This document shows, piece by piece, positions 47,246 through 61,760 of a stretch of DNA of 64,000 bases. How positions within the stretch are numbered: position 1 is the first letter of the stretch; the number at the start of each line of letters is the position of its first letter. Below the pieces are notes generated by a model. It made no database searches. It saw only the letters and a program-made list of their open reading frames with translations, and was not told where the DNA came from. The DNA comes from Microbacterium sp. LWH7-1.2 (GTDB taxonomy: Bacteria > Actinomycetota > Actinomycetes > Actinomycetales > Microbacteriaceae), in the NCBI RefSeq assembly GCF_038397755.1, contig NZ_CP151637.1:3906001-3970000 (forward strand), given 5' to 3'. The position numbers and the translations under genes were made by a program.

Positions 47246-48253
47246 TCACTGCGCGGTGCGAAGCACGTCGTAGCAGCGGGCCACGCGGTCGAGCCACCAC
47301 TGACGGCGGTCGGCGGATGCCGCGTGCGCGGCGAGCAGCGCCGGGTCGGGGGTCACCCTGCCCACGGCGAGCACGCCGGCGCGCGGCGTGAGTGGCGGAT
47401 CCACGACGTCGGCCGTGAACAGCGACGCGGTGCCGAGCCCGCAGTCGTAGTCGTAGTCGAGCTCAGGGAGCGCCGCAGCCAGCGCCACGCCCATCGACAG
47501 CCCCACGGACGTATCGAGAGCGCTCGACACGATCGCGGGAAGCCCGGCCACCTCGACGATTCCGAGCGCCCGCCGCACCCCACCGAGCGGCTGCGCCTTG
47601 ATCACCAGCAGGTCGGCCGCGCCCGCTCGTGCCACGGCGAGGGGATCCGTCGCCTTGCGCACGCTCTCGTCCGCCGCGATCGGGATGCCCATGTACTTCA
47701 CGCGCCGGCGCAGCTCGGCGAGCTCCTCGACGCTCGCACACGGCTGCTCGACGTACTCGAGGTCGAATTCGGCCAGCGCATGCACCGCGTGCTCGGCCTC
47801 GTCGACGTTCCACGCGCCGTTGGCATCGACGCGGATGCGCCCCTCAGGCCCCATCGCCTCGCGCACCGCGCGCACGCGGGCGACGTCGTCCGCGAGCACC
47901 TGTCCGGGCTCGGCCACCTTGATCTTCGCGGTCCGGCAGCCGTCGTATCGCGCGAGAACGGACGGAACGGATGCTGCAGCCACGGCTGGCACGGTGGCGT
48001 TGACGCCGATGAGCTCCCGGCGGGCGGCGGGGCGCGGCATCCGTGAATCCTCGATGGCGGCAGCCAGCCACGTCGAAGCCTCGACGTCGTCGTACTCGGC
48101 GAAGGGGGAGAACTCGGCCCAGCCCTCCGGACCTTCGAAGAGGAGCGCCTCGCGCACGTCGATGCCGCGGAACCGCGTCGCGAGCGGCAGCGCCACCACG
48201 TGCGCGGTGTCGAGGATCTCGGCGAGCGGGGGGAGGTCTGCTGCGCTGCTCAC
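47246..48253 (-). CDS. menC: o-Succinylbenzoate synthase
   Basis: A 335-residue enolase-superfamily enzyme that dehydrates SHCHC to o-succinylbenzoate in menaquinone synthesis. The catalytic lysine is in TAKIKV (K-x-K type), and metal ligands appear in RIRVDANGAWNVDEA, LEYVEQPC and IPIAADESVRK, followed by LLVIKAQPLGG. The length and short N-terminus fit actinobacterial MenC. GTG 48253 was chosen because CAGGAT lies six nt upstream; no other start has a ribosome site. It is separated from menB, menE, menA and menD by 10 kb of other genes. Confidence 0.93.
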   Translation of the reverse strand: MSSAADLPPLAEILDTAHVVALPLATRFRGIDVREALLFEGPEGWAEFSPFAEYDDVEASTWLAAAIEDSRMPRPAARRELIGVNATVPAVAAASVPSVLARYDGCRTAKIKVAEPGQVLADDVARVRAVREAMGPEGRIRVDANGAWNVDEAEHAVHALAEFDLEYVEQPCASVEELAELRRRVKYMGIPIAADESVRKATDPLAVARAGAADLLVIKAQPLGGVRRALGIVEVAGLPAIVSSALDTSVGLSMGVALAAALPELDYDYDCGLGTASLFTADVVDPPLTPRAGVLAVGRVTPDPALLAAHAASADRRQWWLDRVARCYDVLRTAQ

Positions 48254-48364
48254 GCCTCCATCCTGCCCCCAGTCGCCGACGCCTCCGTTCGCTTGCGTTG
48301 AATGTACGTGTCTTCCGCGTTCTCGCGTAGAGACACCGCAGGTGACGCGAACATCGATGTGCCG

Positions 48365-48394
48365 TTGACGATAGTGTGTGACACACAGTATGGT
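48365..48394 (+). promoter_or_regulatory. Promoter and PadR-type operator
   Basis: TTGACG (48365-48370), 18 bp, TATGGT (48389-48394). The spacer holds the perfect odd palindrome TGTGTG-A-CACACA (48375-48387), a likely autorepression site for the PadR protein encoded next. Confidence 0.75.
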
Positions 48395-48401
48395 GTGAGG
48401 C

Positions 48402-48737
48402 ATGAGCGAATCCGAGATCCTCGAGACGCACCTGCAGGAGCTGCGGCGCGGCACGGTCGTGCTGGCGTGCCTGCGGCTGCTCGAGACGCCCGGGTACGGC
48501 TACGGATTGCTCGAAGAGCTGGGGGAGCGAGGCTTCTCCACCGACGCCAACACCCTCTACCCGCTGCTTCGACGCCTCGAGAAGCAGGGGTACCTCACGA
48601 GCGAGTGGAACACCGACGAGTCCCGTCCGCGCAAGTTCTACCGCACCAGCCCCGCCGGTTCGCGCCTGGCGGGCGCTCTCACCGACGAATTCCACGCGAT
48701 CGCCACGGCGATCGACGACCTTCCCCAGGAGAACTGA
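48402..48737 (+). CDS. PadR-family repressor
   Basis: A 111-residue winged-helix protein: LRRGTVVLACLRLLETPGYGYGLLEEL, then STDANTLYPLLRRLEKQGYLTSEW, RKFYRTSPAG and a short C-terminal helix (PadR-s2 class). It starts eight nt after TATGGT, close to leaderless. The next gene begins one nt after its stop. PadR-HAAS pairs commonly form self-regulated envelope-stress modules. Confidence 0.92.
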   Translation: MSESEILETHLQELRRGTVVLACLRLLETPGYGYGLLEELGERGFSTDANTLYPLLRRLEKQGYLTSEWNTDESRPRKFYRTSPAGSRLAGALTDEFHAIATAIDDLPQEN

Positions 48738-49819: not shown

Positions 49820-50617
49820 ATGCCCCTCCTCGACACTCCTGTGCGCCTCGGCGTGCAGCTGCAGCCCCAGCACGCCCCCTACTCCGCCTTCCGCGACGCG
49901 GTTCTCCGCCTCGAGGAGATGGGCGTCGACATCCTCTTCAACTGGGACCACTTCTTCCCGCTGACCGGCGACCCCGACGGCCTGCACTTCGAGTCGTGGA
50001 CCATGCTCGCCGCGTGGGCGGAGCAGACCGAGCGCGTCGAGTTCGGTGCCCTCGTCAACTGCAACAGCTACCGCAACCCCGACCTGCAGGCCGACATGGC
50101 CCGCACGATCGACCACATCTCCGCGAAGGACGGCGTCGGCCGCTTCATCTTCGCCACCGGCTCGGGCTGGTTCGCCCGGGACTACGAGGAGTACGGGTAT
50201 GACTTCGGCACCGCCGGGTCGCGCCTGAACGACCTCGCGGCCGGGCTCGAGCGCATCGAGGCGCGCTGGCAGAAGCTCAACCCGGCCCCGACGCGAGACA
50301 TCCCGGTCATGATCGGAGGTTCGGGCGAGCAGAAGACGCTGCGCCTCGTCGCCCGCCACGCCGACATCTGGCACAGCTTCGTGCGCCCGGACCACCTGCC
50401 CCACAAGCTCGGCGTCATCGAGCGGTGGGCCGGGCGCGAGCAGCGCGACACGTCGAACCTGGTCATCTCGAACGAGCTGCACCGCCGCGACGAGGCCTAC
50501 GCCGACGAGCTCTACGACGCCGGCGTGCGCCTCTTCACGCTCGGCTTCCACGGCCCCGACTGGGACTACGACCTCATCCGCCAGTGGCTGGCCTGGCGCG
50601 ACGCCAAGAACGCCTGA
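49820..50617 (+). CDS. LLM-class F420-dependent oxidoreductase
   Basis: A 265-residue luciferase-like TIM-barrel protein, a different subgroup from the one at 18176. It has VRLGVQLQPQHAPYSAF at the start, LFNWDHFFPLTGD near 38, FIFATGSGWFARDYEEYGYDFG near 110 and VMIGGSGEQKTLRLVARHAD near 162, matching actinobacterial F420-dependent proteins. It is shorter than usual (about 300-350). The substrate is unknown. ATG 49820 follows TAGTCT by six nt (leaderless). Confidence 0.88.
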   Translation: MPLLDTPVRLGVQLQPQHAPYSAFRDAVLRLEEMGVDILFNWDHFFPLTGDPDGLHFESWTMLAAWAEQTERVEFGALVNCNSYRNPDLQADMARTIDHISAKDGVGRFIFATGSGWFARDYEEYGYDFGTAGSRLNDLAAGLERIEARWQKLNPAPTRDIPVMIGGSGEQKTLRLVARHADIWHSFVRPDHLPHKLGVIERWAGREQRDTSNLVISNELHRRDEAYADELYDAGVRLFTLGFHGPDWDYDLIRQWLAWRDAKNA

Positions 50618-50772: not shown

Positions 50773-53700
50773 GTGACCGCAGCACCGCCCGCACCCCGGT
50801 TCAGCCTCGACATCGACGGGGTTCCGCGTCCCGCGCGCTCGCAGCAGCTGCTCGACGGCGTGCGCGAGCGGGTCGTCATCGCCGACGGCGCGATGGGCAC
50901 CATGCTTCAGCGGTACGACCTCTCGATCGACGGCGACTTCCAGGGGCTCGAGGGGTGCAACGAGATCCTCAACGTGTCGCGCCCGGACGTCGTGGGCGAG
51001 ATCCATGACGCGTACCTCGCGGTCGGTGTCGACGCCGTCGAGACGAACACGTTCGGCGCGAACTGGTCGAACCTCGACGACTACGGCATCGTCGATCGCA
51101 TCGCCGAGCTCGCCGAGAGGGGCGCCCGCATCGCGCGCGAGCGCGTCGAGGCTGCCGAGGCCGCCGACGGCCGCGTGCGCTGGGTGCTCGGGTCGATGGG
51201 TCCGGGCACCAAGCTCCCGAGCCTCGGGCACACCACCTACGACAACCTCAAGCAGACCTTCGCGCTGCAGGCCGAAGGCCTCATCGACGGCGGCGCCGAC
51301 GCCTTCCTGGTGGAGACGAGCCAGGACCTCCTTCAGACGAAGGCCGCGATCAACGGCTGTCGTCAGGCGATCGTGAGCCGCGGCATCCGCCTCCCGATCT
51401 TCGTCGAGGTGACCGTCGAGACCACCGGCACCATGCTGATGGGGTCCGAGATCGGCGCTGCGCTGACGGCGATCGAGCCGCTCGGGGTCGACGCGATCGG
51501 CCTCAACTGCGCCACCGGTCCGACCGAGATGAGCGAGCACCTGCGGCACCTCTCGAAGCACGCGACGGTGCCGATCGCCTGCATGCCCAACGCCGGCCTG
51601 CCCGTGCTCGGCGCGAACGGAGCGCACTATCCGCTGACGCCCGTCGAGCTCGCGACCGCGCATGAGCAATTCGTGCGCGAGTTCGGGCTGGGCCTCGTCG
51701 GCGGGTGCTGCGGCACCACGCCCGAGCACCTCGCCGCGGTCGTCGAGCGCCTGCGTCCGGTCGGGGGCGTCGAGGCGCGCCGCCCGGAGCTCGACCCGGG
51801 CGTCGCGTCGCTGTACCAGCACGTGTCGTTCCAGCAGGACGCCTCGTACCTCGCGATCGGCGAGCGCACCAACGCGAACGGCTCGAAGGCGTTCCGCGAG
51901 GCGATGCTGGAGCAGCGCTGGGACGACTGCGTCGAGATCGCCCGCGATCAGATCCGCGTCGGCGCGCACCTGCTCGACGTCTGCATCGACTACGTCGGCC
52001 GCGACGGCGTCGCCGACATCCGCGAGGTCGTCTCGCGGCTCGCTTCGGCCTCGACGCTCCCGCTCGTCGTCGATTCCACCGAGCCCGCGGTCATCGCCGC
52101 CGGTCTCGAGCTCATCGGCGGTCGTCCGGTCGTGAACTCCGTGAACTACGAGGACGGCGACGGCCCCACCTCGCGGTTCGGCCGCATCATGCCGCTCGTC
52201 AAGGAGCACGGCACCGCCGTCGTCGCGCTGACGATCGACGAGCACGGCCAGGCCCGCACCGCGGACGGCAAGGTGCAGATCGCCTCGCGCCTCGTCGACG
52301 AGCTCGTGGGCGAGTGGGGCCTGCGCGTCAACGACATCATCGTCGACTGCCTCACCTTCCCGATCGCGACCGGCCAGGAGGAGACCCGGCGCGATGCGAT
52401 CGAGACGATCGAGGCGATCCGGCAGATCACCGAGAAGTACCCCGGCATCAACACGACGCTCGGCGTCTCGAACGTGTCATTCGGTCTGAACCCGGCCGCG
52501 CGCAGCGTGCTGAACTCGGCGTTCCTCCATGAGGCGGTGGAGGCGGGCTTGACCTCCGGCATCATCGACGCGGCCAAGATCGTGCCGCTCGCGTCGATCT
52601 CGGAGGAGCAGCGCAAGGTCGCCCTCGACCTGGTGTGGGACCGCCGCGAGTACGACGCCGACGGCAACGTCACCTACGACCCGCTGGCACGGATGCTCGA
52701 CCTCTTCGCCGGCGTCGACACCGCGGCCCTGCGCAACCAGCGGGCGGCCGAGCTCGCGGCCCTGCCGGTCGGCGAGCGGCTCGAGCGCCGCATCATCGAC
52801 GGTGAGGGCAAGGGCCTCGAGGCCGACCTCGACCTCGCCCGCGCGGGCGGGCTGTCGCCCCTGCAGATCATCAACGACCACCTGCTCGAGGGCATGAAGG
52901 TCGTCGGCGAGCGGTTCGGCGCCGGCGAGATGCAGCTGCCGTTCGTGCTGCAGTCCGCCGAGGTGATGAAGAACGCGGTCGCTCTCCTCGAACCGCACAT
53001 GGAGAAGTCGGATGCCTCGGGCAAGGGCCGCATCGTGCTCGCGACCGTCCGCGGCGACGTGCACGACATCGGCAAGAACCTCGTCGACATCATCCTCACC
53101 AACAACGGGTACGACGTCATCAACCTCGGCATCAAGCAGCCGATCGCCGACATCATCGCCGCCGCCGAGGAGCACGGCGCCGACGTGATCGGCATGTCGG
53201 GCCTGCTCGTGAAGTCGACGGTCGTGATGAAGGAGAACCTCGAGGAGCTCACCTCGCGCGGTCTCGGCACCAAGTGGCCGGTGATCCTCGGCGGCGCCGC
53301 GCTCACGCGCGCGTACGTCGAGGACGACCTCGCCTCGTTGTTCGACGGCGAGGTGCGGTACGCGCGCGACGCGTTCGAGGGCCTCGCGCTGATGGAGCCG
53401 CTGGTGAAGATCGCTCGCGGCGCCGACCCGGCGTCCGTCGGTCTGCCGGCGCTGAAGAAGCGGCGCCACGCGGCCGGCTCCAAGCTCACGCTGACCGAGC
53501 CCGAGGCGATGCCCGCGCGCTCGGACGTCGCATCCGACAATCCCGTGCCCGCCCCGCCGTTCTGGGGCACCCGCATCGTCCGCGGTCTCGCGCTGCACGA
53601 CTACGCGGCGTTCCTCGACGAGCGTGCGACGTTCATGGGCCAGTGGGGCCTCAAGCCCGGCCGCGGCGAGGACGGCGCCACGTACGAGCAGCTCGTCGAG

Positions 53701-54405
53701 ACCGAGGGCCGGCCGCGGCTGCGGTACTGGCTCGACCGCATCCTCGCCGAGGGCATGCTCGACGCCTCGGTCGCGTACGGGTTCTTCCCTGTCGTGTCGG
53801 AGGACAACGACGTCGTCGTGCTGCACCACCGGGACGACCCGTCGGGTGCCCTCGGCGCCCCAGGTCTCCTGGCCCCCGACGGCGGCTCGGGCGGCACGCT
53901 GGGCACCGACCGCCTCCGCTTCCACTTCCCGCGCCAGCGCCGCGACCGCCACCTGTGCCTGGCCGACTTCGTCCGATCGCGCGAGTCGGGTCAGGTCGAC
54001 GTGCTGCCGGTGCAGCTCGTGACCGCGGGCGCGAACATCGACTCGGTCACGGCGAAGCTCTTCGCCGCCGACAAGTACCGCGACTACTACGAGCTCAACG
54101 GGCTCGTGATGCAGCTGACAGAGGCGCTCGCCGAGTTCTGGCACGCGCGCATCCGCTCCGAGCTCGGCTTCTCGCACGAAGACCCGACCGACACCGCGGG
54201 CCTCTTCAAGCTCGAGTACCGCGGCGCCCGCTTCTCCCTCGGCTACCCCGCGTGCCCCGACATGGAGGACCGCCACAAGGTCGTCGAGCTCCTTCGCCCC
54301 GAGCGCATGGGCGTCGAGCTCAGCGAGGAGCTGCAGCTGCACCCCGAGCAGTCGACGGACGCCTTCGTCTTCCACCACCCCGAGGCGAAGTACTTCTCCG
54401 TCTGA
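50773..54405 (+). CDS. metH: Cobalamin-dependent methionine synthase
   Basis: A 1210-residue MetH with all four modules in order. The homocysteine domain has zinc ligands Cys246 (LNCATGP) and Cys312-Cys313 (GGCCGTT). The methyltetrahydrofolate domain begins near VSFQQDASYLAIGERTNANGS. The B12 cap and Rossmann domains have DVHDIGKN with the lower-axial ligand His764. The C-terminal reactivation (AdoMet) domain ends in GYPACPDMEDRHKVVELL. It methylates homocysteine using methyl-B12. GTG 50773 follows TAAAAT by seven nt (leaderless), which leaves no room for a B12 riboswitch. It needs cobalamin, and a candidate importer lies next to it. Confidence 0.97.
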   Translation: MTAAPPAPRFSLDIDGVPRPARSQQLLDGVRERVVIADGAMGTMLQRYDLSIDGDFQGLEGCNEILNVSRPDVVGEIHDAYLAVGVDAVETNTFGANWSNLDDYGIVDRIAELAERGARIARERVEAAEAADGRVRWVLGSMGPGTKLPSLGHTTYDNLKQTFALQAEGLIDGGADAFLVETSQDLLQTKAAINGCRQAIVSRGIRLPIFVEVTVETTGTMLMGSEIGAALTAIEPLGVDAIGLNCATGPTEMSEHLRHLSKHATVPIACMPNAGLPVLGANGAHYPLTPVELATAHEQFVREFGLGLVGGCCGTTPEHLAAVVERLRPVGGVEARRPELDPGVASLYQHVSFQQDASYLAIGERTNANGSKAFREAMLEQRWDDCVEIARDQIRVGAHLLDVCIDYVGRDGVADIREVVSRLASASTLPLVVDSTEPAVIAAGLELIGGRPVVNSVNYEDGDGPTSRFGRIMPLVKEHGTAVVALTIDEHGQARTADGKVQIASRLVDELVGEWGLRVNDIIVDCLTFPIATGQEETRRDAIETIEAIRQITEKYPGINTTLGVSNVSFGLNPAARSVLNSAFLHEAVEAGLTSGIIDAAKIVPLASISEEQRKVALDLVWDRREYDADGNVTYDPLARMLDLFAGVDTAALRNQRAAELAALPVGERLERRIIDGEGKGLEADLDLARAGGLSPLQIINDHLLEGMKVVGERFGAGEMQLPFVLQSAEVMKNAVALLEPHMEKSDASGKGRIVLATVRGDVHDIGKNLVDIILTNNGYDVINLGIKQPIADIIAAAEEHGADVIGMSGLLVKSTVVMKENLEELTSRGLGTKWPVILGGAALTRAYVEDDLASLFDGEVRYARDAFEGLALMEPLVKIARGADPASVGLPALKKRRHAAGSKLTLTEPEAMPARSDVASDNPVPAPPFWGTRIVRGLALHDYAAFLDERATFMGQWGLKPGRGEDGATYEQLVETEGRPRLRYWLDRILAEGMLDASVAYGFFPVVSEDNDVVVLHHRDDPSGALGAPGLLAPDGGSGGTLGTDRLRFHFPRQRRDRHLCLADFVRSRESGQVDVLPVQLVTAGANIDSVTAKLFAADKYRDYYELNGLVMQLTEALAEFWHARIRSELGFSHEDPTDTAGLFKLEYRGARFSLGYPACPDMEDRHKVVELLRPERMGVELSEELQLHPEQSTDAFVFHHPEAKYFSV

Positions 54406-54431
54406 CGGATGCCGCGGGCTGCGGCATCCGT
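54405..54431. terminator. Terminator from an inverted GGATGCCGC pair after metH
   Basis: ACGGATGCCGC and its exact complement form an 11-bp stem with a 5-nt GGGCT loop, directly at the metH stop codon. Confidence 0.78.
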
Positions 54432-54501
54432 GAAGGTGGCAGGTATGGGCGGCGTTGCGGCGGTCGCGGTGGTCACGTGGGCTCCTCCCGGCACGCGACC
54501 T

Positions 54502-57468
54502 TCACGACAGGGCAGCGGCGCGCTCTCGCGGGGCGGAGATGGACTGGGCACCCGATGCCAGCGGCTTCGTGCGGCGCAGTGCCGCGAGGATCGGCCGTCC
54601 GACGACGACCAGTCCGATGACGGTGGTGACCGCGCGGAGGGTGTCCCAGCTGAGGGTCGAGGTGACGAGCGAGTACAGCAGGAAGCTCGAGAGGTTCACA
54701 TCGAGCGGTGCGCCGCCGTCGTACGAGATGCCGGTGCCGTAGCCGACGGCGAACGGCCAGAACCACAGGTTCATCAGCAGGCCGAACGCGTACGAGGCGA
54801 CGACGCCGTAGACGCTCAGCATCGCGATCTCGCCGGCGCGCGGCATCCGTCGTGGCAGCAGTCCGGCGATGGCGCCCACCCACGCGCACGCGAACATCTG
54901 GAACGGCGTCCACGGGCCGAACGTGCCCGTGATGAGGGTGGAGAGGGCGATGGTCGCCATGCCGAGCAGCATCCCGAACCTGGCCCCGTAGGCGCGGCCG
55001 GCGAGGATCAGCAGAATGAACACCGCCTCGACGCCGCCGACGCCGGTGCCTGCGATACGCACGGCCGCACCGATCGCGGCGAGCGTGCCGAGGAGCGCGA
55101 GCATGTGAGCCGACCGCACGCTGCCGTCGAGTGTCGCGACGACGACGAGCGCCGCGAGCGGCACCAGGGCGAGCGCCGCGATCGGCACGGCCGCGTGCGC
55201 CTGCTCGGGCACCGCGGTCGCGACGAGTGGCCAGCAGAACGCCCCGAGCGCGACGAGGTTCGCGGCCGCGAGTGCGGCGAGCGGTGCAGCTGCGCGCCTG
55301 CGCCGCGGCGAGTCGCGTCGTCCGCCGACGCCTCCGCCGAGTGGGCGGGGTCCGGCGGATCCGGCGCCGCGATGCCTCGGGTCACCCGTCGTCCCGTCTC
55401 CACTGCCGTTTGCAGGACTCTCCACGCGACCGCCGTCGACAGCCGCAGAATTCCGGGCGGCGAACCAGTCGCCCCCGTATTGGTCCTGCGAACGGTCGGA
55501 GGGAGAGAGCGAAGATCGGGTCGCCGGCATCGCGACCGGGACGGATGCTGCGGCCAGCACGCCTGCGCTCATCGTCAGGGTCCGGTCGGCGAGGGCGATG
55601 AAGGCGGGCTCGTGCGATGCCACCAGCACGGCGGTGCCGGAAGCGGCGAGCGAGGTGAGCGCCGCCCAGACCAGGTCGCGTGCGGCGGGGTCGAGGCCGC
55701 GCGTGGGTTCGTCCACCATGAGCACTCGCGGCGAGCCCGCAAGCTGGATCGCCAGGGCGAGGCAGCGCCGTTCGCCCGCTGAGAGGTCGCGCGGGTGCCG
55801 TGCCATCCGCGCCGCGAACACGGGGGAACCGGGGTCGAGGCCCAGGAACCCCGCGAACCGCGCGGCGGTCGCGGATGCGGCAGCGCGCGCGGCCCGGCGA
55901 TCGGCTCGGCGGCATTCGGCCGCAACGGTGTCGGAGACGAAGAGGTCGTCGGAGGCGTCCGGAACCAGCGCCACCCGACCGGTCGACTCGATCTCCGTCC
56001 CTCGGGCCGGCAGCGCGAGCGCGGCGAGCAGGCTCGACTTGCCGGCGCCGTTGGCACCGACGAGGGCGACGATCTCGCCGGCGTGCAGCTCGACGTCCGC
56101 CCCGGCCACGGCCACCGTGTCGCGGTGACGCACGGTGATTCCGCAGGCGCGGAGCACGCGCTCCCGCGCCTGTCCGGCTTCGGGGCGCATCCCGTGCGTT
56201 CGGGGCGTATGCCGTGCGCCCCGAACGTCGGCGGTGCGCCCCGAACCCGTGGGTGACTCCGCGGAGCCGATCACGCCGCCGTCGATCCTCAGCACCGTGT
56301 CGGCGATCCCTGCGACTGCGTCCACACGGTGCTCGGCCACCACGACGCACAACCCCGCCTCGTGCGCGAGGGCATCGAGCAGGCCGGCGATCCGCACGCG
56401 GGCGTCGGCGTCGAGGTCGGCGAGCGGTTCGTCGACGAGCAGCAGGATCGGGTGCTCGACGATCGCCGCCGCGATCGCGACGAGCGTCGCCTCGCCGGCC
56501 GAGAGGCCCCGCGTGGGGCGGTCGAGCAGCGGCGTCACCCCGACGCGGTCGGCGACCTCGGCCACGCGGGCGGCGGCGATCACGGGTGCGACACCGCGCA
56601 GTTCGAGCGAGAGCCCGATCTCATCGCGGACGCGCTCGGTGGCGAACGCGTCACGCGGATGCTGCAGCACGACACCCACGCGCCGCGCGAGGTCGCGCGG
56701 GGGCACGGCGGCGCGCTCGTGGCCGACGACCCGCAGCGATCCGGCGATCCAGCCGCCGTCCGTGTGCGGGTGCAGTCCCGAGATCGCGCGGAGCAGCGTC
56801 GACTTGCCCGACCCTGTCGCCCCGACGACGAGCGTGAGCGTGCCCGCCGCGAGCGCGAGCGAGGAGGGAAGACGGATGCCTCGTCCCGCGGTGCCGTCGC
56901 CGAAGCCGAGCTCCATGCCCTCGGCCTCGACCGGGGCGAGGCAGTCCCCGGCGAGCCCGCGCCCCGCGAAGCCGCGCAGCTCGAGCGCTGCGGCGACGGC
57001 TCCGGCGCGCTCGAGTGTGCGTTCCAGCAGGGGGAGCAGCATCCGTGCCCCGCCCCGCTCGCCGCGGAGGCGCTGCGCGAACCGCACCGCCCGGGCGCCG
57101 TCGGCCAGGGAGGGGAGCGTCGCCGCCGCGATGGCGAGCGCCCGCGCGATGCCGCGAAGCGGGCCGCGTCGCGACGCGCGCGCGAACACCCGGTGCAGGT
57201 CGACGACGGCGTTCACCACGCCGAATGCCAGGATCGCGAGCGCGATCGGCAGGGCGCTGGCCGCAGCATCCCACAGTCCGTCGACCGTGACGGGGCCCAG
57301 CAGCACCACATGCGCGAACGGCGACGGCAGTCGCACCGCCGGAAGGTCCAGCAGGACGAAGCCGTCGCCGTCGGCGCCGTGGAAGAGGATGCGGTAGACG
57401 ACCCGGGCCGCCACGAACCCTGCGGCGAGGATCGCCGCGGCTCGCAGGGGACCGGGTCGGAACGTCAT
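54502..57468 (-). CDS. One-chain ECF transporter (T, A, A' and S modules fused)
   Basis: A 988-residue protein that reads as a complete energy-coupling-factor vitamin importer. Residues 1-180 resemble EcfT, with membrane helices and ARALAIAAATLPSLADGARAVRFAQRLRG as the coupling-helix region. Residues 195-405 are the first ATPase (Walker A GATGSGKS 216-223, signature LSAGE 322-326, Walker B LLLVDEP 342-348). Residues 440-640 are the second (GANGAGKS 471-478, LSAGE 562-566, VLMVDEP 582-588). Residues 725-965 are a six-helix S-component-like domain. ECF parts are normally separate genes or T-A-A fusions. The linker 407-432 comes from a palindromic repeat. ATG 57468 lies one nt after the DUF4430 lipoprotein stop. 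Confidence 0.9.
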   Translation of the reverse strand: MTFRPGPLRAAAILAAGFVAARVVYRILFHGADGDGFVLLDLPAVRLPSPFAHVVLLGPVTVDGLWDAAASALPIALAILAFGVVNAVVDLHRVFARASRRGPLRGIARALAIAAATLPSLADGARAVRFAQRLRGERGGARMLLPLLERTLERAGAVAAALELRGFAGRGLAGDCLAPVEAEGMELGFGDGTAGRGIRLPSSLALAAGTLTLVVGATGSGKSTLLRAISGLHPHTDGGWIAGSLRVVGHERAAVPPRDLARRVGVVLQHPRDAFATERVRDEIGLSLELRGVAPVIAAARVAEVADRVGVTPLLDRPTRGLSAGEATLVAIAAAIVEHPILLLVDEPLADLDADARVRIAGLLDALAHEAGLCVVVAEHRVDAVAGIADTVLRIDGGVIGSAESPTGSGRTADVRGARHTPRTHGMRPEAGQARERVLRACGITVRHRDTVAVAGADVELHAGEIVALVGANGAGKSSLLAALALPARGTEIESTGRVALVPDASDDLFVSDTVAAECRRADRRAARAAASATAARFAGFLGLDPGSPVFAARMARHPRDLSAGERRCLALAIQLAGSPRVLMVDEPTRGLDPAARDLVWAALTSLAASGTAVLVASHEPAFIALADRTLTMSAGVLAAASVPVAMPATRSSLSPSDRSQDQYGGDWFAARNSAAVDGGRVESPANGSGDGTTGDPRHRGAGSAGPRPLGGGVGGRRDSPRRRRAAAPLAALAAANLVALGAFCWPLVATAVPEQAHAAVPIAALALVPLAALVVVATLDGSVRSAHMLALLGTLAAIGAAVRIAGTGVGGVEAVFILLILAGRAYGARFGMLLGMATIALSTLITGTFGPWTPFQMFACAWVGAIAGLLPRRMPRAGEIAMLSVYGVVASYAFGLLMNLWFWPFAVGYGTGISYDGGAPLDVNLSSFLLYSLVTSTLSWDTLRAVTTVIGLVVVGRPILAALRRTKPLASGAQSISAPRERAAALS
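56179..56245. repeat. Nested double palindrome inside the ECF reading frame
   Basis: Outer arms TTCGGGGCGC (56179-56188) and its complement (56236-56245) enclose inner arms GTTCGGGGCG (56198-56207) and its complement (56217-56226). It is read in frame and encodes the linker between the two ATPases. It is related to the intergenic copy at 41139-41209. Confidence 0.88.
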
Positions 57469-57469
57469 G

Positions 57470-58018
57470 TCAGGATGTCGGCGCGGCAGGCTCGCCGTTC
57501 AGGGTGAAGAGCAGCTCGAGCGACTCGCCCGGCTCGAGCTCGAGCGTCGAGATGCCCTCCTGGGCGTAGCCCCATTCGCCGCCGGCCGGCTTGACCCACA
57601 TCGACCAATACGCGAACGCCGGGGACATCGCCTCGCACGTCTCGAAATAGTCCGAGCCGTCTTCGGCAGGGATTGCGAGGTCTTCGGCAGGCACGCCGTT
57701 GACGCGGCACACGGCGTCGTCGCCGAACTCGACGTTGCCCTCGGTCTCGACGCCGACGAGCGTCAGCGCGTCCGCGGCGGCGAGCGTCTCGTCGGTCGCG
57801 ATGCACCACTGCTTGCTGTCGCCCTCATCGAGGGCCGACGCGTCGACGGCCACGGTGATGCCGGCGTCATCGGCGCACGCCTCGTCGCTGACCTGCACGG
57901 CCTGCGTCTCGGACGCCGTGGGCGTGGCCTCGGGCGCGTCGGACGAGCACGCGGCGAGGGCGAACAGCAGGGCAGCGGAGGCCGCGGCAGCCGCCACGGC
58001 GCGAAGAGTCGAAGTCAC
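57470..58018 (-). CDS. DUF4430 lipoprotein, likely vitamin-binding partner of the ECF transporter
   Basis: A 182-residue secreted lipoprotein. The signal ends in LFALAAC with Cys24 as the lipid site. An Ala/Thr/Glu linker follows, then a domain of the DUF4430 type, which resembles the C-terminal part of transcobalamin. Visible features are VNGVPAEDLAIPAEDGSDYF, AYWSMWVKPAGGEWGYAQEG and the late LELEPGESLELLF. Cys pairs (residues ~48, 67, 103, 128) may form disulfides. It is the first gene of a two-gene operon with the ECF fusion. A cobalamin-like ligand is inferred, not shown. Confidence 0.83.
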   Translation of the reverse strand: MTSTLRAVAAAAASAALLFALAACSSDAPEATPTASETQAVQVSDEACADDAGITVAVDASALDEGDSKQWCIATDETLAAADALTLVGVETEGNVEFGDDAVCRVNGVPAEDLAIPAEDGSDYFETCEAMSPAFAYWSMWVKPAGGEWGYAQEGISTLELEPGESLELLFTLNGEPAAPTS

Positions 58019-58094
58019 CGATCCAGGCTAGGCCCCGGTCGCGTGTGTCCGGTTGCAGATGACGGCCGCTCGGAGCCCGCCGTAGGCTGGCCGG

Positions 58095-59009
58095 GTGAGC
58101 GTTTCGGAACTCTTCGACGACAGCGAATGGCAGCAGGCACCCGGCCAGCCGGACGGCGGCTACACCGACATCACCGCCCACGTCTCGAAGGACGGCCGCA
58201 TCGCGCGCATCGCGTTCGACCGGCCGGAGGTGCGCAACGCCTTCCGCCCGCACACCGTCGACGAGCTCTACCGCGCCCTCGACATCGCCCGCCAGGACCC
58301 GCGCGTCGGTGTCGTGCTGCTCACGGGCAACGGACCGAGCCCGAAAGACGGCGGCTGGGCGTTCTGCTCTGGCGGCGACCAGCGCATCCGCGGGCGCGAC
58401 GGCTACAAGTACTCCGAGGACGAGACTGCCGTCCCCGCCGACGCGCAGGCCCGCGCCGGCCGGCTGCACATCCTCGAGGTGCAGCGACTCATCCGGTTCA
58501 TGCCCAAGGTCGTGATCGCCGTGATCCCCGGCTGGGCGGCCGGCGGCGGGCACTCGCTGCACGTCGTGTGCGACCTCTCGATCGCCTCCGCCGAGCACGG
58601 CCGGTTCAAGCAGACCGACGCCGACGTCGGGAGCTTCGACGCCGGATACGGCTCGGCGTATTTCGCCCGGCAGATCGGGCAGAAGTTCGCGCGCGAGGTC
58701 TTCTTCCTCGCCGAGGAGTACTCCGCGCAGCGCGCGTACGAGATGGGCGCCGTCAACCGCGTGGTGCCGCACGCCGACCTCGAGCGCGAGGCCGTCGCGA
58801 TGGCCCGCACCATCCTCACCAAGTCGCCGACCGCGATCCGGATGCTCAAGTTCGCCTTCAACGCCGTCGACGACGGCATGGTCGGGCAGCAGGTGTTCGC
58901 GGGCGAGGCCACGCGCCTCGCGTACGGCACCGACGAGGCGGTCGAGGGCCGCGACTCGTTCCTCGAGAAGCGCGACCCCGACTGGTCGCCGTACCCCTGG
59001 CACTTCTGA
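58095..59009 (+). CDS. menB: 1,4-Dihydroxy-2-naphthoyl-CoA synthase
   Basis: A 304-residue crotonase-fold enzyme that cyclises o-succinylbenzoyl-CoA. The signature is RIAFDRPEVRNAFRPHTVDEL; the CoA loop reads GGWAFCSGGDQRIRGRDGYKY, and AGGGHSLHVVCDLSIAS is diagnostic of MenB. GTG 58095 follows TAGGCT by six nt. The stop overlaps the ATG of a 31-codon ORF (TGATG), which in turn overlaps menE. It is divergent from the DUF4430-ECF operon, sharing a 76-bp promoter gap. Confidence 0.96.
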   Translation: MSVSELFDDSEWQQAPGQPDGGYTDITAHVSKDGRIARIAFDRPEVRNAFRPHTVDELYRALDIARQDPRVGVVLLTGNGPSPKDGGWAFCSGGDQRIRGRDGYKYSEDETAVPADAQARAGRLHILEVQRLIRFMPKVVIAVIPGWAAGGGHSLHVVCDLSIASAEHGRFKQTDADVGSFDAGYGSAYFARQIGQKFAREVFFLAEEYSAQRAYEMGAVNRVVPHADLEREAVAMARTILTKSPTAIRMLKFAFNAVDDGMVGQQVFAGEATRLAYGTDEAVEGRDSFLEKRDPDWSPYPWHF

Positions 59010-59104
59010 TGAGCATCGGCTCCTCCACATCCCATGCCGGGGTCCTGGGAGCGCGGCGAGACCGCCTGCGCCGCCAGGCTCTGCAGGGGTTGATGGCCGC
59101 GTGA
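59009..59104 (+). CDS. Tiny 31-codon ORF bridging menB and menE
   Basis: ATG 59009 shares one base with the menB stop (TGATG), and its own stop overlaps the menE start by four nt (GTGA). The product MSIGSSTSHAGVLGARRDRL and 11 more residues is basic, without a known domain. Both overlaps fit translational coupling. It may be a coupling peptide, a small protein, or a chance frame. Evidence is only its position and uninterrupted reading. Confidence 0.4.
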   Translation: MSIGSSTSHAGVLGARRDRLRRQALQGLMAA

Positions 59105-60255
59105 AGCTCGTACCCGTCGTCGGCGACGACCCCCGCGAGATCCTGCGGGGGCTGCGCGGCGCGCTCCACGGCGCAGGACCCGCGCTCGGGCTCGGTCTCG
59201 TCAGCGGGCATCCCGCCGACGTCCGGCCGGGGACCGCGGTGGTCGTGACGACCTCCGGATCGACCGGCATCCCGAAGAGCGTCGTCCTCAGCCGCGACGC
59301 CCTCACCGCGAGCGCGCTGTCGACGGCCGACCGGATCGGCGACGGCGCATGGCTGCTGGCGCTGCCCGCGAGCTACGTCGCCGGCCTGCAGGTGCTCGTG
59401 CGCTCGCTCGTCGCCGACCGTGAGCCCGCGATCCTCTCCGGCGCGTTCACCCCCCAGGCCTTCGCGGCTGCCGCCCTCACGATGGTGTCGACCGAAGGCG
59501 GCGAGCGCGTGCCCACCTACACGTCGCTGGTGCCCGCGCAGCTGTCGAAGCTGCTCGACGCGGCCGAGCACGACCCCTCCGTGCTCGCGGCCGTCCGCTC
59601 GTTCGAGACGATCCTCGTCGGAGGCCAGGCGCTTCCCGCCGTCACCCTGGAGCGCGCCGAAGCCGCGGGGGCGCGCATCGTGCGCACCTACGGCTCCACC
59701 GAGACCTGCGGCGGCTGCGTGTACGACGGCGTAGCCCTGGGCAACGTGCGGCTGCGCATCGAGCACGGCGAGGTGCAGGTCTCGGGCCCCGTCCTGGCCG
59801 ACGGCTATCTGGGCGACGAAGAGCGAACGGATGCTGCCTTCCTCCGCGACCGCGACGGATCCCGGTGGTACCGCACCGGCGACGCGGGGCTCATCGAGGA
59901 CGGGGTCCTGCGCGTGCGCGGCCGCCTCGACCACGTCATCGTCTCCGGCGGCCTCAACGTCTCGCTCGACCGCGTGGAGCGGATCGTGCGCGGGATCCCC
60001 GGACTCGCACTCGCCGTGGTGGTCGGGGTTCCCGACGAGCGGTGGGGCGAGGCATCCGTCGTCGTCGCCTCGCGGGGCGAGGCGCTGCGCCGCAGCGAAG
60101 CCGTACAGCTCGAGGAGGCGCGCGCCGCCGTGCAGGCCGAGATCGGCGCGCACGCCCGGCCGTCCCGGCTGGTGCTGGTCGACGAGCTCGCGACGCTGCC
60201 GTCCGGCAAGCCCGACCGCGAGGCGATCCGCCGCGCGGTGATGCTGCTGCACTGA
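59101..60255 (+). CDS. menE: o-Succinylbenzoate-CoA ligase
   Basis: A 384-residue ANL-superfamily adenylating enzyme of the short actinobacterial MenE type. The phosphate loop is VVTTSGSTGIPKSVVL near residue 43, the adenine motif is TYGSTETCGG near 197, YRTGDAGL is near 258 and the C-terminal catalytic lysine is in LPSGKPDREAIRR. It activates o-succinylbenzoate for MenB. GTG 59101 overlaps the 31-codon ORF. One CGGATGCTGC copy at 59828 encodes TDAA. It is convergent with a VOC gene and followed by a hairpin. Confidence 0.94.
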   Translation: MKLVPVVGDDPREILRGLRGALHGAGPALGLGLVSGHPADVRPGTAVVVTTSGSTGIPKSVVLSRDALTASALSTADRIGDGAWLLALPASYVAGLQVLVRSLVADREPAILSGAFTPQAFAAAALTMVSTEGGERVPTYTSLVPAQLSKLLDAAEHDPSVLAAVRSFETILVGGQALPAVTLERAEAAGARIVRTYGSTETCGGCVYDGVALGNVRLRIEHGEVQVSGPVLADGYLGDEERTDAAFLRDRDGSRWYRTGDAGLIEDGVLRVRGRLDHVIVSGGLNVSLDRVERIVRGIPGLALAVVVGVPDERWGEASVVVASRGEALRRSEAVQLEEARAAVQAEIGAHARPSRLVLVDELATLPSGKPDREAIRRAVMLLH

Positions 60256-60776: not shown

Positions 60777-61760
60777 GTGGCAGGAACCCCGAGCAAGAAG
60801 CGCACCACCGCCGGACGCAAGAAGCAGCAGTCGCGCGGAAACCCGCAGAAGGCGCACGTCTCGCGAGACCCCGCGCACGTCGAGAAGCCGACCGCGCGCG
60901 ACTGGATCGGCGCCGCGCGCCTGCGCACGCTGCCGCTCGCGATCACGCCCATCCTCGTCGGCACGGGGGCCGCGATCCTCGTCGTGGACGTCTTCCACTG
61001 GGTGATCGCGCTCTTCTGCCTCATCGTGTCGGTGTCGCTGCAGATCGGCGTCAACTACGCCAACGACTACAGCGACGGCGTGCGCGGCACGGACGACTTC
61101 CGCCTGGGTCCCGCCCGTCTCACGGCCGGCCGCAAGGTGAGGCCCCGCACCGTGCTGACGGTCGCGCTGGTGTTCTTCGCGATCGCCGCGATCGCCGGAC
61201 TCGCGATCACGATCCGCACCCAGCAGTGGTGGCTCATCGCCGTCGGCGCCGTGTGCATCATCGCCGCGTGGTTCTACACAGGCGGCAAGCGCCCGTACGG
61301 CTACTACGGGCTCGGCGAGCTCTTCGTGTTCCTCTTCTTCGGCCTGGTGGCGACGCTCGGCACGACGTGGGTGCAGGCGTTCGCCCTCCCGCAGGAGGCG
61401 TGGTTCGGCGCCGTCGGCGTCGGCCTCATCGCCTGCGCCGTGCTGCTCGCCAACAACCTGCGCGACATCGACCAGGACCGCAAGGCGGGCAAGCGCACGC
61501 TCACCGTGCTGATCGGCCGCACCGCGACGCGCTGGCTGTTCACGGTGTTCCTGCTGATCGCGTTCGCCATCGCGGTGTTCCTGGCATGGATCGGGTACCC
61601 GATCGCGTGGCTGACGCTGCTGGCCCTCCTGGCCGGCGCACCCGCGATCCTCATCGTGTGGACTTACCGCGATCCCCGGGAGCTCGTCGTCGCCCTGGGC
61701 CTCACGTCACTCACGTCGGTCGCCTACGGCGCGTTCCTGATGTGGGCCTTCATCGGCTGA
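60777..61760 (+). CDS. menA: 1,4-Dihydroxy-2-naphthoate polyprenyltransferase
   Basis: A 327-residue UbiA-family membrane prenyltransferase that attaches the side chain to the menaquinone ring. The first Asp-rich motif is NYANDYSDGVRGTD and the second is NNLRDIDQDRKAGKRTL. Eight or nine helices are visible. An unusually basic ~45-residue N-terminal extension (GTPSKKRTTAGRKKQQSRGN and on) precedes the domain. GTG 60777 follows TATGAT by eight nt (leaderless). The stop is followed directly by one CGGATGCTGC copy. Confidence 0.95.
   Translation: MAGTPSKKRTTAGRKKQQSRGNPQKAHVSRDPAHVEKPTARDWIGAARLRTLPLAITPILVGTGAAILVVDVFHWVIALFCLIVSVSLQIGVNYANDYSDGVRGTDDFRLGPARLTAGRKVRPRTVLTVALVFFAIAAIAGLAITIRTQQWWLIAVGAVCIIAAWFYTGGKRPYGYYGLGELFVFLFFGLVATLGTTWVQAFALPQEAWFGAVGVGLIACAVLLANNLRDIDQDRKAGKRTLTVLIGRTATRWLFTVFLLIAFAIAVFLAWIGYPIAWLTLLALLAGAPAILIVWTYRDPRELVVALGLTSLTSVAYGAFLMWAFIG

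What the first reader, a model, noticed from the sequence alone, without database searches (positions are those of the whole stretch)
54502..58018. Single-polypeptide ECF vitamin importer with a transcobalamin-like lipoprotein, next to metH
Seen: one 988-residue frame contains an EcfT-like domain, two intact ABC ATPases (Walker A at 216 and 471, LSAGE at 322 and 562, Walker B at 342 and 582) and a six-helix S-like domain at 725-965. A DUF4430 lipoprotein ends one nt upstream. Known: ECF importers are normally built from separate S, T, A and A' proteins; substrate-binding lipoproteins are not part of the standard scheme; DUF4430 resembles a transcobalamin domain. Inferred: a one-gene importer assisted by a lipoprotein that captures cobalamin or a corrinoid, feeding the adjacent B12-dependent MetH. 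Full T-A-A'-S fusions of this kind would be an unusual transporter architecture.
Basis: partly seen in the sequence, partly recalled or inferred. Interest (0 to 1): 0.82.

Follow-up and report, generated by a model that had tools for sequence, protein, structure and literature searches.

The report
Single-chain vitamin B12 importer
A Microbacterium-like bacterium carries a probable vitamin B12 importer whose four usual parts are fused into one protein, together with a small surface lipoprotein predicted to fold like part of the human B12 carrier transcobalamin; among its relatives it goes with B12-using enzymes, and it would let an open question about how such importers move be tested.

Summary
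The frame is real: 988 residues, T-A-A'-S in one chain, preceded 1 nt upstream by a lipoprotein. It is an ECF-type importer, very probably for cobalamin. Evidence: (1) in one draw of 150 Microbacteriaceae genomes the S part occurs in 29 and MetH in 27, 26 shared; the three S-without-MetH genomes carry B12-dependent ribonucleotide reductase downstream on the same strand and a cobalamin riboswitch upstream; none of the 150 passes the CobI/CbiL cut-off, and MetE shows no association. (2) Unfused Micromonosporaceae relatives have cobalamin riboswitches (4 of 5 loci examined) and secreted homologues of the lipoprotein. (3) The lipoprotein model matches transcobalamin-type beta domains first. Corrections: two helices precede the part of S that matches S families; the lipoprotein does not match Pfam DUF4430; metH is convergent, not co-transcribed; transcobalamin-like proteins beside CbiO/CbiQ were predicted as B12 scavengers in 2007. 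Additional: the T part is cut to about two membrane helices plus coupling helices (split relatives: 7-8 hydrophobic segments), and the four-part fusion is best read as mostly one event after a T-A-A' + S stage. Binding and transport are untested. New variant of a known kind, notable because a tethered S component cannot leave its motor.

The parts
57470..58018 (-). Lipoprotein, 182 aa, GTG start, lipobox LAAC (Cys24); predicted transcobalamin beta-domain (SLBB-like) fold
   Evidence: homology to secreted proteins of riboswitch-linked Micromonosporaceae operons, hhalign probability 99.6, E 6.2e-24
54502..57468 (-). T-A-A'-S fusion, 988 aa, ATG start 1 nt after the lipoprotein stop codon
56929..57468 (-). 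T part (residues 1-180): two membrane helices and two long coupling helices ending in QRLRG (132-136) and LELRG (162-166)
   Evidence: CbiQ profile matched from position 85 on, below cut-off
56254..56931 (-). First ABC ATPase (about residues 180-405)
55543..56187 (-). Second ABC ATPase (about residues 428-642)
55297..55542 (-). Flexible linker (residues 643-724), pLDDT under 50, rich in Gly, Arg and Ser. The stretch that matches residues 640-737 (98 in the window) is 56-141 residues, median 74, in 73 aligned rows
54571..55296 (-). S part (residues 725-966): two helices and then the part recognised by ECF S families
50863..54405 (+). metH, B12-dependent methionine synthase (1345 bits, cut-off 1010.85), convergent neighbour
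54405..54431 (.). 11-bp stem hairpin between the two convergent stop codons, perhaps a two-way terminator (inferred)
   Evidence: z-score of the whole 105-nt piece is only -0.95

Best explanation
It is a group I (dedicated) ECF-type ABC importer for cobalamin or a close corrinoid, with T, A, A' and S in one chain. Proposed working: the lipoprotein, anchored outside the membrane and folded like the beta domain of transcobalamin, captures B12 near the membrane (inferred) and passes it to the S part (inferred). The two ATPases, held by the coupling helices, drive S to topple and release B12 inside (by analogy with known ECF transporters). The vitamin serves mainly MetH. Because S hangs on the motor by a linker of about 80 residues, it can topple but cannot leave. 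Shown here: architecture, gene order, co-occurrence, predicted fold of the lipoprotein, riboswitch link of relatives. Not shown: binding, transport, movement of S.
For: Same draw of 150 Microbacteriaceae genomes: S in 29, MetH in 27 at E<=1e-50, 26 of them over cut-off, both in 26; Fisher p 1e-24, genus-level p 2e-15 (not corrected for kinship). Within genus code g1, S and MetH agree in 12 of 12 listed genomes (5 with both, 7 with neither), in g80 in 6 of 6, in family f2 in 5 of 5. MetE: no association, p 1.0. B12-binding domain PF02310 in 28 of 150: the 27 MetH genomes and one weak other. CobI/CbiL TIGR01467 over its cut-off in 0 of 150. The three S-without-MetH genomes (G064, G075, G138) have class II ribonucleotide reductase over cut-off on the same contig and strand, with a cobalamin riboswitch upstream of the operon in 3 of 3. 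Of 31 genomes with MetH or NrdJ, 29 have S. Lipoprotein profile in all 29 S genomes at E<=1e-3. Riboswitch upstream on the operon strand in 4 of 5 Micromonosporaceae loci examined. Fold of the lipoprotein. metH convergent downstream in 66 of 79 loci, menB near in 28 of 79.
Against: No riboswitch near the window's operon, even at E<=5, nor in the 14 of 73 fused-type loci examined. The S profile matches no solved chain by sequence, so the substrate is assigned by context. Foldseek E-values for the lipoprotein are modest (best 4.2e-3, none <=1e-3; query TM-scores 0.32-0.42), although ranking and probability are clear. G069 has a B12-dependent ribonucleotide reductase and no S (contamination possible, not shown). 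G038 has MetH and no detected S, but its lipoprotein, T and ATPase run into a contig end; G104 has lipoprotein, T and ATPases up to a contig end and neither S, MetH nor NrdJ over cut-off. The lipoprotein match is weak in G064 and G075 (E 4.5e-5, 1.5e-4). Only one B12-synthesis marker was searched, and it passes its cut-off in just 4 of 14 control genomes (rings in 10). The own genome also has MetE, so MetH need not be essential. BtuFCD-type importers were not searched.
Confidence: 0.88

Rival explanations
1. An ECF importer for a cobalamin precursor or another corrinoid (for example cobinamide, or cobamides with other lower ligands) rather than cobalamin itself.
For: Context (MetH, NrdJ, cobalamin riboswitches) cannot tell cobamides apart. 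Burroughs et al. 2007 also allowed for precursors.
Against: No CobI/CbiL over cut-off in 150 genomes, so early precursors would be of little use. Later salvage genes such as cobU, cobS or cobC were not searched.
Confidence: 0.25
2. An importer for another vitamin or metal (riboflavin, cobalt) that merely sits next to metH.
For: The weak Pfam matches are ECF-ribofla_trS and CbiQ 'Cobalt transport protein'.
Against: Those names are family-wide labels. MetH/NrdJ co-occurrence, cobalamin riboswitches of relatives and the transcobalamin-like fold all point to B12. Cobalt import would be of little use if B12 is not made.
Confidence: 0.04
3. The lipoprotein is not a B12 carrier but a structural partner of the transporter; S takes B12 directly from solution.
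For: Only the beta-type domain is present: the toroid-like partner found in 6 of 6 Micromonosporaceae loci is not found in the Microbacteriaceae loci searched (loci only, not whole genomes). The beta-grasp (SLBB) fold serves other ligands too.
Confidence: 0.25
4. The full-length chain is cut in the cell, so that the working machine is an ordinary multi-subunit ECF transporter.
For: Long low-confidence linkers at 406-427 and 643-724 could be cut.
Against: 31 of 79 loci keep one open frame and the full fusions cluster on the tree.
Confidence: 0.1

Closest known systems
ECF-CbrT of Lactobacillus delbrueckii, group II B12 ECF transporter (PMC12075633: passages; PMC5997447: start of abstract in a search listing, and two reference-list passages)
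   Same: ECF motor (T, A, A') with a membrane-embedded S component; substrate B12
   Different: CbrT is one of several S components that use the same motor and leave it on ATP; here S is dedicated and covalently tethered. The S profile matches no PDB chain by sequence.
Transcobalamin-like SLBB proteins with CbiO/CbiQ operons (Burroughs et al. 2007, PMC1796856: passages, and section 7 part 1 of 2)
   Same: Secreted transcobalamin-like beta-grasp protein next to CbiO-like ATPase and CbiQ-like membrane protein, predicted to scavenge B12 in bacteria that usually lack key B12-synthesis enzymes
   Different: Clade described there as widespread in low-GC Gram-positives and planctomycetes; the parts seen do not describe a fused transporter, an S part, MetH/NrdJ co-occurrence or a trimmed T. 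Section 7 part 2 and the supplement were not read.
ECF modules behind cobalamin and AdoCbl riboswitches in acI freshwater Actinobacteria (PMC5301498: passages)
   Same: Actinobacterial ECF module proposed as cobalamin transporter in genomes without B12 synthesis
   Different: Fusion and transcobalamin-like lipoprotein do not appear in the passages seen; no riboswitch was found at the window operon
Human transcobalamin, intrinsic factor, haptocorrin (beta domain)
   Same: Predicted fold of the lipoprotein
   Different: No toroid domain in the window protein; lipobox; 10-19 % identity over the aligned parts (ranks 1-15)

Membership tests
ECF-type ABC importer | Two ABC ATPase domains with Walker A, Walker B and signature motifs | tested here: met
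   signature is LSAGE rather than LSGGQ (recalled consensus) in both
ECF-type ABC importer | T component with two long coupling helices ending in X-Arg-X motifs (as described in a passage of PMC10368641) | tested here: met
   helices 105-134 and 141-164; QRLRG 132-136 and LELRG 162-166
ECF-type ABC importer | T component matches the CbiQ profile above the curated cut-off | tested here: inconclusive
   window 18.5 of 25 bits, Salinispora 24.4 of 25; PF02361 is listed among precomputed domains of many relatives
ECF-type ABC importer | Membrane-embedded S component of an ECF S family | tested here: met
   Met through relatives: Salinispora S 35.2 against cut-off 30.7 for PF12822; the five Micromonosporaceae rows are 46-48 % identical to the window S. 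The window itself is below cut-off.
Group I (dedicated) ECF transporter | S encoded with its own motor | tested here: met
   same frame in the window and 31 of 79 loci; adjacent genes in 47 more; 1 locus shows S alone on a short contig
ECF-type ABC importer | ATP-driven uptake of a micronutrient | not testable with these tools
   needs an uptake assay
Transcobalamin-like (SLBB) beta-domain proteins | Transcobalamin beta-domain fold | tested here: met
Transcobalamin-like (SLBB) beta-domain proteins | Beta-hairpin insert after the helix that contacts B12 | not tested
   no residue-level superposition was made
Transcobalamin-like (SLBB) beta-domain proteins | Binds B12 | not testable with these tools
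   needs purified protein
Pfam DUF4430 | Profile match | tested here: not met
   no match for the window protein or 19 aligned relatives, so not filed as DUF4430. Many relatives carry a precomputed PF28005; two of the relatives scanned here, P0022 (with it) and P0069 (with it), match nothing in the Pfam copy used
BtuM / solitary S component | S component working without an ECF motor | tested here: not met
   S is fused to T and two ATPases

The most novel reading that the evidence does not exclude
A fully covalent ECF importer in which S never leaves the motor: T has been pared down to about two membrane helices plus the coupling helices, the linker of about 80 residues lets S topple in place, and loss of most of the T membrane domain and of the riboswitch marks a lineage specialised for B12 supply to MetH, with a one-domain transcobalamin-like lipoprotein doing outside what the two-domain carrier does in animals. 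It would show that expulsion of S is not needed for ECF transport.
Probability: 0.5. Interest if true: 0.75.

Novelty: new variant of a known kind. Interest (0 to 1): 0.62.

Why it matters
ECF transporters are thought to work by toppling of the S component; in shared-motor (group II) systems S is also expelled. A single-molecule study on the B12 transporter ECF-CbrT says that it does not formally show expulsion to be essential for transport and that a comparison with a group I system would be interesting (PMC12075633, passages). [quoted passage not shown] A natural transporter with S tied to its motor is a direct test: the linker can be cut or shortened and uptake compared. It also offers a one-gene B12 importer for reconstitution, a T component reduced to its core, and a B12 uptake assignment for proteins that sources name only as ABC or ECF ATP-binding proteins or S components, without a substrate. 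S-family relatives occur in 210 of 394 genomes drawn from the class at E<=1e-10.

Tried and rejected
Sequence search of solved structures with the S profile (no match to E 1), the lipoprotein profile (one chance hit, E 1.8), the Micromonosporaceae profile (none to E 10) and the Salinispora toroid-like protein (complement C4 at E 0.1) gave nothing firm. Riboswitch in the window: none at gathering threshold; at E<=5 over 54300-58700 only a chance snoRNA-type hit. The lipoprotein start lies 76 bp from the divergent menB start, little room for an aptamer. A frameshift artefact as source of the fusion was rejected. L020, a metagenome-assembled genome, has T-A-A' and S in different frames inside the full-fusion clade; whether that is real is left open. 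Literature: ten searches, in an open-access library only, listed no description of this fused transporter; Rodionov et al. 2009 is not held, so an earlier mention of a four-domain fusion cannot be excluded. PMC12075633 says that ECF subunits are sometimes fused into multidomain proteins.

Riboswitches were sought in 19 of the 79 loci (14 fused-type, 5 of 6 Micromonosporaceae) and in L088-L090. T was measured in the window and 13 of the 72 fused-type loci that have T, on frames bounded by hits or stop codons, so lengths are approximate. The tree is a quick one of first-ATPase plus S segments, midpoint-rooted, with 24 of 79 inner branches open and long branches flagged (L072, L054, L047, L016, L015, L034). 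MetH was asked for in 19 handles from the class-wide draw, 14 of Microbacteriaceae and 5 of family f2; the other S-bearing genomes of the order and class were not asked. B12-dependent enzymes without PF02310, other than NrdJ, were not searched. Co-occurrence p-values treat genomes as independent, and the handle lists for one search were copied.

The passage on BioMNY had been left out; because of it I lowered interest if true from 0.8 to 0.75.
Full report
Observation. The window lies in a complete 4.45-Mb genome (G000) whose nearest named relatives in the searches are Microbacterium species. The minus strand carries a 182-aa frame (57470-58018) and, 1 nt on, a 988-aa frame (54502-57468). Pfam finds two ABC ATPases (E 1.1e-37), a weak CbiQ match at 53-168 (18.5 bits, cut-off 25) and a weak ECF riboflavin-type S match at 793-913 (20.2 bits, cut-off 26.7). 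The predicted structure (mean pLDDT 78.6, 73 sequences) shows helices at 5-29, 62-88, 105-134 and 141-164, two ATPases, low-confidence linkers at 406-427 and 643-724, and nine helical stretches at 724-966, the first few at pLDDT near 60. Hydropathy finds 6, 7 or 8 hydrophobic segments in the S part at thresholds 1.6, 1.4 and 1.3, so the number of membrane helices is not settled; what is clear is that the S-family match starts after about two helices, here and in Salinispora. With N and C termini of S components in the cytosol (passage of PMC12075633), an even number of extra helices fits a cytosolic ATPase in front; this is inference.

Relatives and the history of the fusion. Of 79 loci from species genomes, 31 have T, A, A' and S in one frame, 41 have T-A-A' plus a separate S, 6 (all Micromonosporaceae) have T, A-A' and S as three genes, and 1 shows S alone on a short contig. 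On a quick tree of 82 rows the full fusion needs three changes; 31 of 32 full rows (window included) sit with one non-full row (L020) in a branch of 99 % SH-aLRT support, and Leifsonia (L017) lies outside it. Best reading: split, then T-A-A' + S, then full fusion, mostly one event; the direction is inferred, as the root is a midpoint.

Trimmed T. In 13 of 13 sampled fused-type loci (of 72 with T) the T part before the first ATPase is 159-206 residues, with two hydrophobic segments in 8 and three in 5; the window's T (1-190) has two. In 7 of 7 split-type relatives the T frame is 345-499 residues with seven or eight segments, and the fused T aligns to its middle. The two long helices with X-Arg-X-like ends are kept. 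The CbiQ profile is matched only from position 85 on.

Link to B12. (1) Phylogenetic profile over the same draw of 150 Microbacteriaceae genomes: S in 29, MetH in 27 at E<=1e-50 and 26 over cut-off, both in 26; lipoprotein in 31, including all 29 with S, weakly in G064 and G075; MetE in 59, unrelated to S. Fisher p for S and MetH 1e-24; for S and MetE 1.0; genus level 2e-15. 15 of the 26 genomes with S and MetH lack a MetE match at E<=1e-50. Two genomes have the lipoprotein without a detected S: in G038 lipoprotein, T and first ATPase run into a contig end, and MetH is present; in G104 lipoprotein, T and both ATPases reach a contig end, and neither MetH nor NrdJ over cut-off was found. (2) Within groups: genus g1, 5 genomes with both and 7 with neither, 12 of 12; g80, 4 with both and 2 with neither; family f2, 2 with both and 3 with neither (members listed in those draws). 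(3) B12 synthesis: TIGR01467 over cut-off in 0 of 150, with four weaker hits including one in the own genome; the marker passes its cut-off in only 4 of 14 control genomes, so this is suggestive rather than proof. B12-binding domain PF02310 in 28 of 150, i.e. the 27 MetH genomes and one weak other, G034. (4) The three S genomes without MetH, G064, G075 and G138, have class II ribonucleotide reductase over cut-off. Its gene lies downstream of S on the same strand, about 0.5 kb away in G064 and G138 and 5.6 kb away in G075, and a cobalamin riboswitch lies upstream of the lipoprotein homologue in all three. NrdJ passes its cut-off in two more of 150: G092, which has S and MetH, and G069, which has no S. 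G069's enzyme best fits model PRK07562 and lies on a 33-kb contig, so contamination is possible but not shown. Together 29 of 31 genomes with MetH or NrdJ have S, and 29 of 29 with S have one of the two enzymes. (5) Neighbourhood: metH lies convergent and downstream in 66 of 79 loci, at 6 to 4863 nt, whereas menB, on the other side, is near in only 28 of 79. Of the 13 loci without it, 6 are Micromonosporaceae and 2 (L009, L046) end soon after S; the other five, L018, L019, L026, L055 and L056, belong to genomes that have MetH elsewhere (5 of 5). The two Micromonosporaceae genomes asked also have MetH. (6) Riboswitches: of five Micromonosporaceae loci examined, L075, L076, L078 and L079 have a cobalamin riboswitch upstream on the operon strand; L074 has only one on the other strand (L074-L076 also carry others on the opposite strand or downstream). 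None in the 14 fused-type loci examined or in the window.

Mechanism. I take it to be a dedicated ECF importer. Shown: parts, order, co-occurrence, predicted fold of the lipoprotein. Inferred: the lipoprotein captures B12 and offers it to S; S topples in place; the linker keeps S on the motor. The alternatives are listed with probabilities.

Known and new. ECF transporters for B12 (ECF-CbrT), transcobalamin-like proteins beside CbiO/CbiQ genes, and actinobacterial ECF modules behind cobalamin riboswitches have been described or predicted. Not found in the searches named under Tried and rejected: the four-part fusion with a trimmed T, the one-domain transcobalamin-like lipoprotein as its constant partner, and the MetH/NrdJ co-occurrence. 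I therefore call it a new variant of a known kind.

Noticed in passing
window 47246-48454 (-), 58095-59009 (+), 59101-60255 (+), 60777-61760 (+): Menaquinone genes menC, menB, menE-like (below its cut-off) and menA lie on both sides of the metH-transporter pair, so the B12 unit sits inside a menaquinone neighbourhood in this lineage.
   Followed up: partly
L088, L089, L090 (genomes G064, G138, G075): Split transporter operon with cobalamin riboswitch and class II ribonucleotide reductase in Microbacteriaceae without MetH: a second lineage of the same importer serving another B12 enzyme.
   Followed up: yes
L074-L076, L078, L079: Micromonosporaceae operons carry two beta-type secreted proteins and one or two toroid-like stretches, possibly a multi-protein bacterial counterpart of transcobalamin.
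   Followed up: partly
G069 contig C7 (L124): Class II ribonucleotide reductase of the PRK07562 type on a 33-kb contig of a Microbacteriaceae genome without the transporter; perhaps a contaminating contig.
   Followed up: partly
L073, L026: Genomes labelled Acidobacteria and Arthrobacter carry Microbacteriaceae-type copies; both are metagenome-assembled, so wrong binning or naming is possible.
   Followed up: no
window 49820-50617 (+): F420-dependent oxidoreductase of subfamily TIGR03856 upstream of metH.
   Followed up: no
L067 6001-10428: Locus of Cryobacterium sp. Y29 with an unusually long matched stretch (4.4 kb against about 2.8 kb).
   Followed up: no
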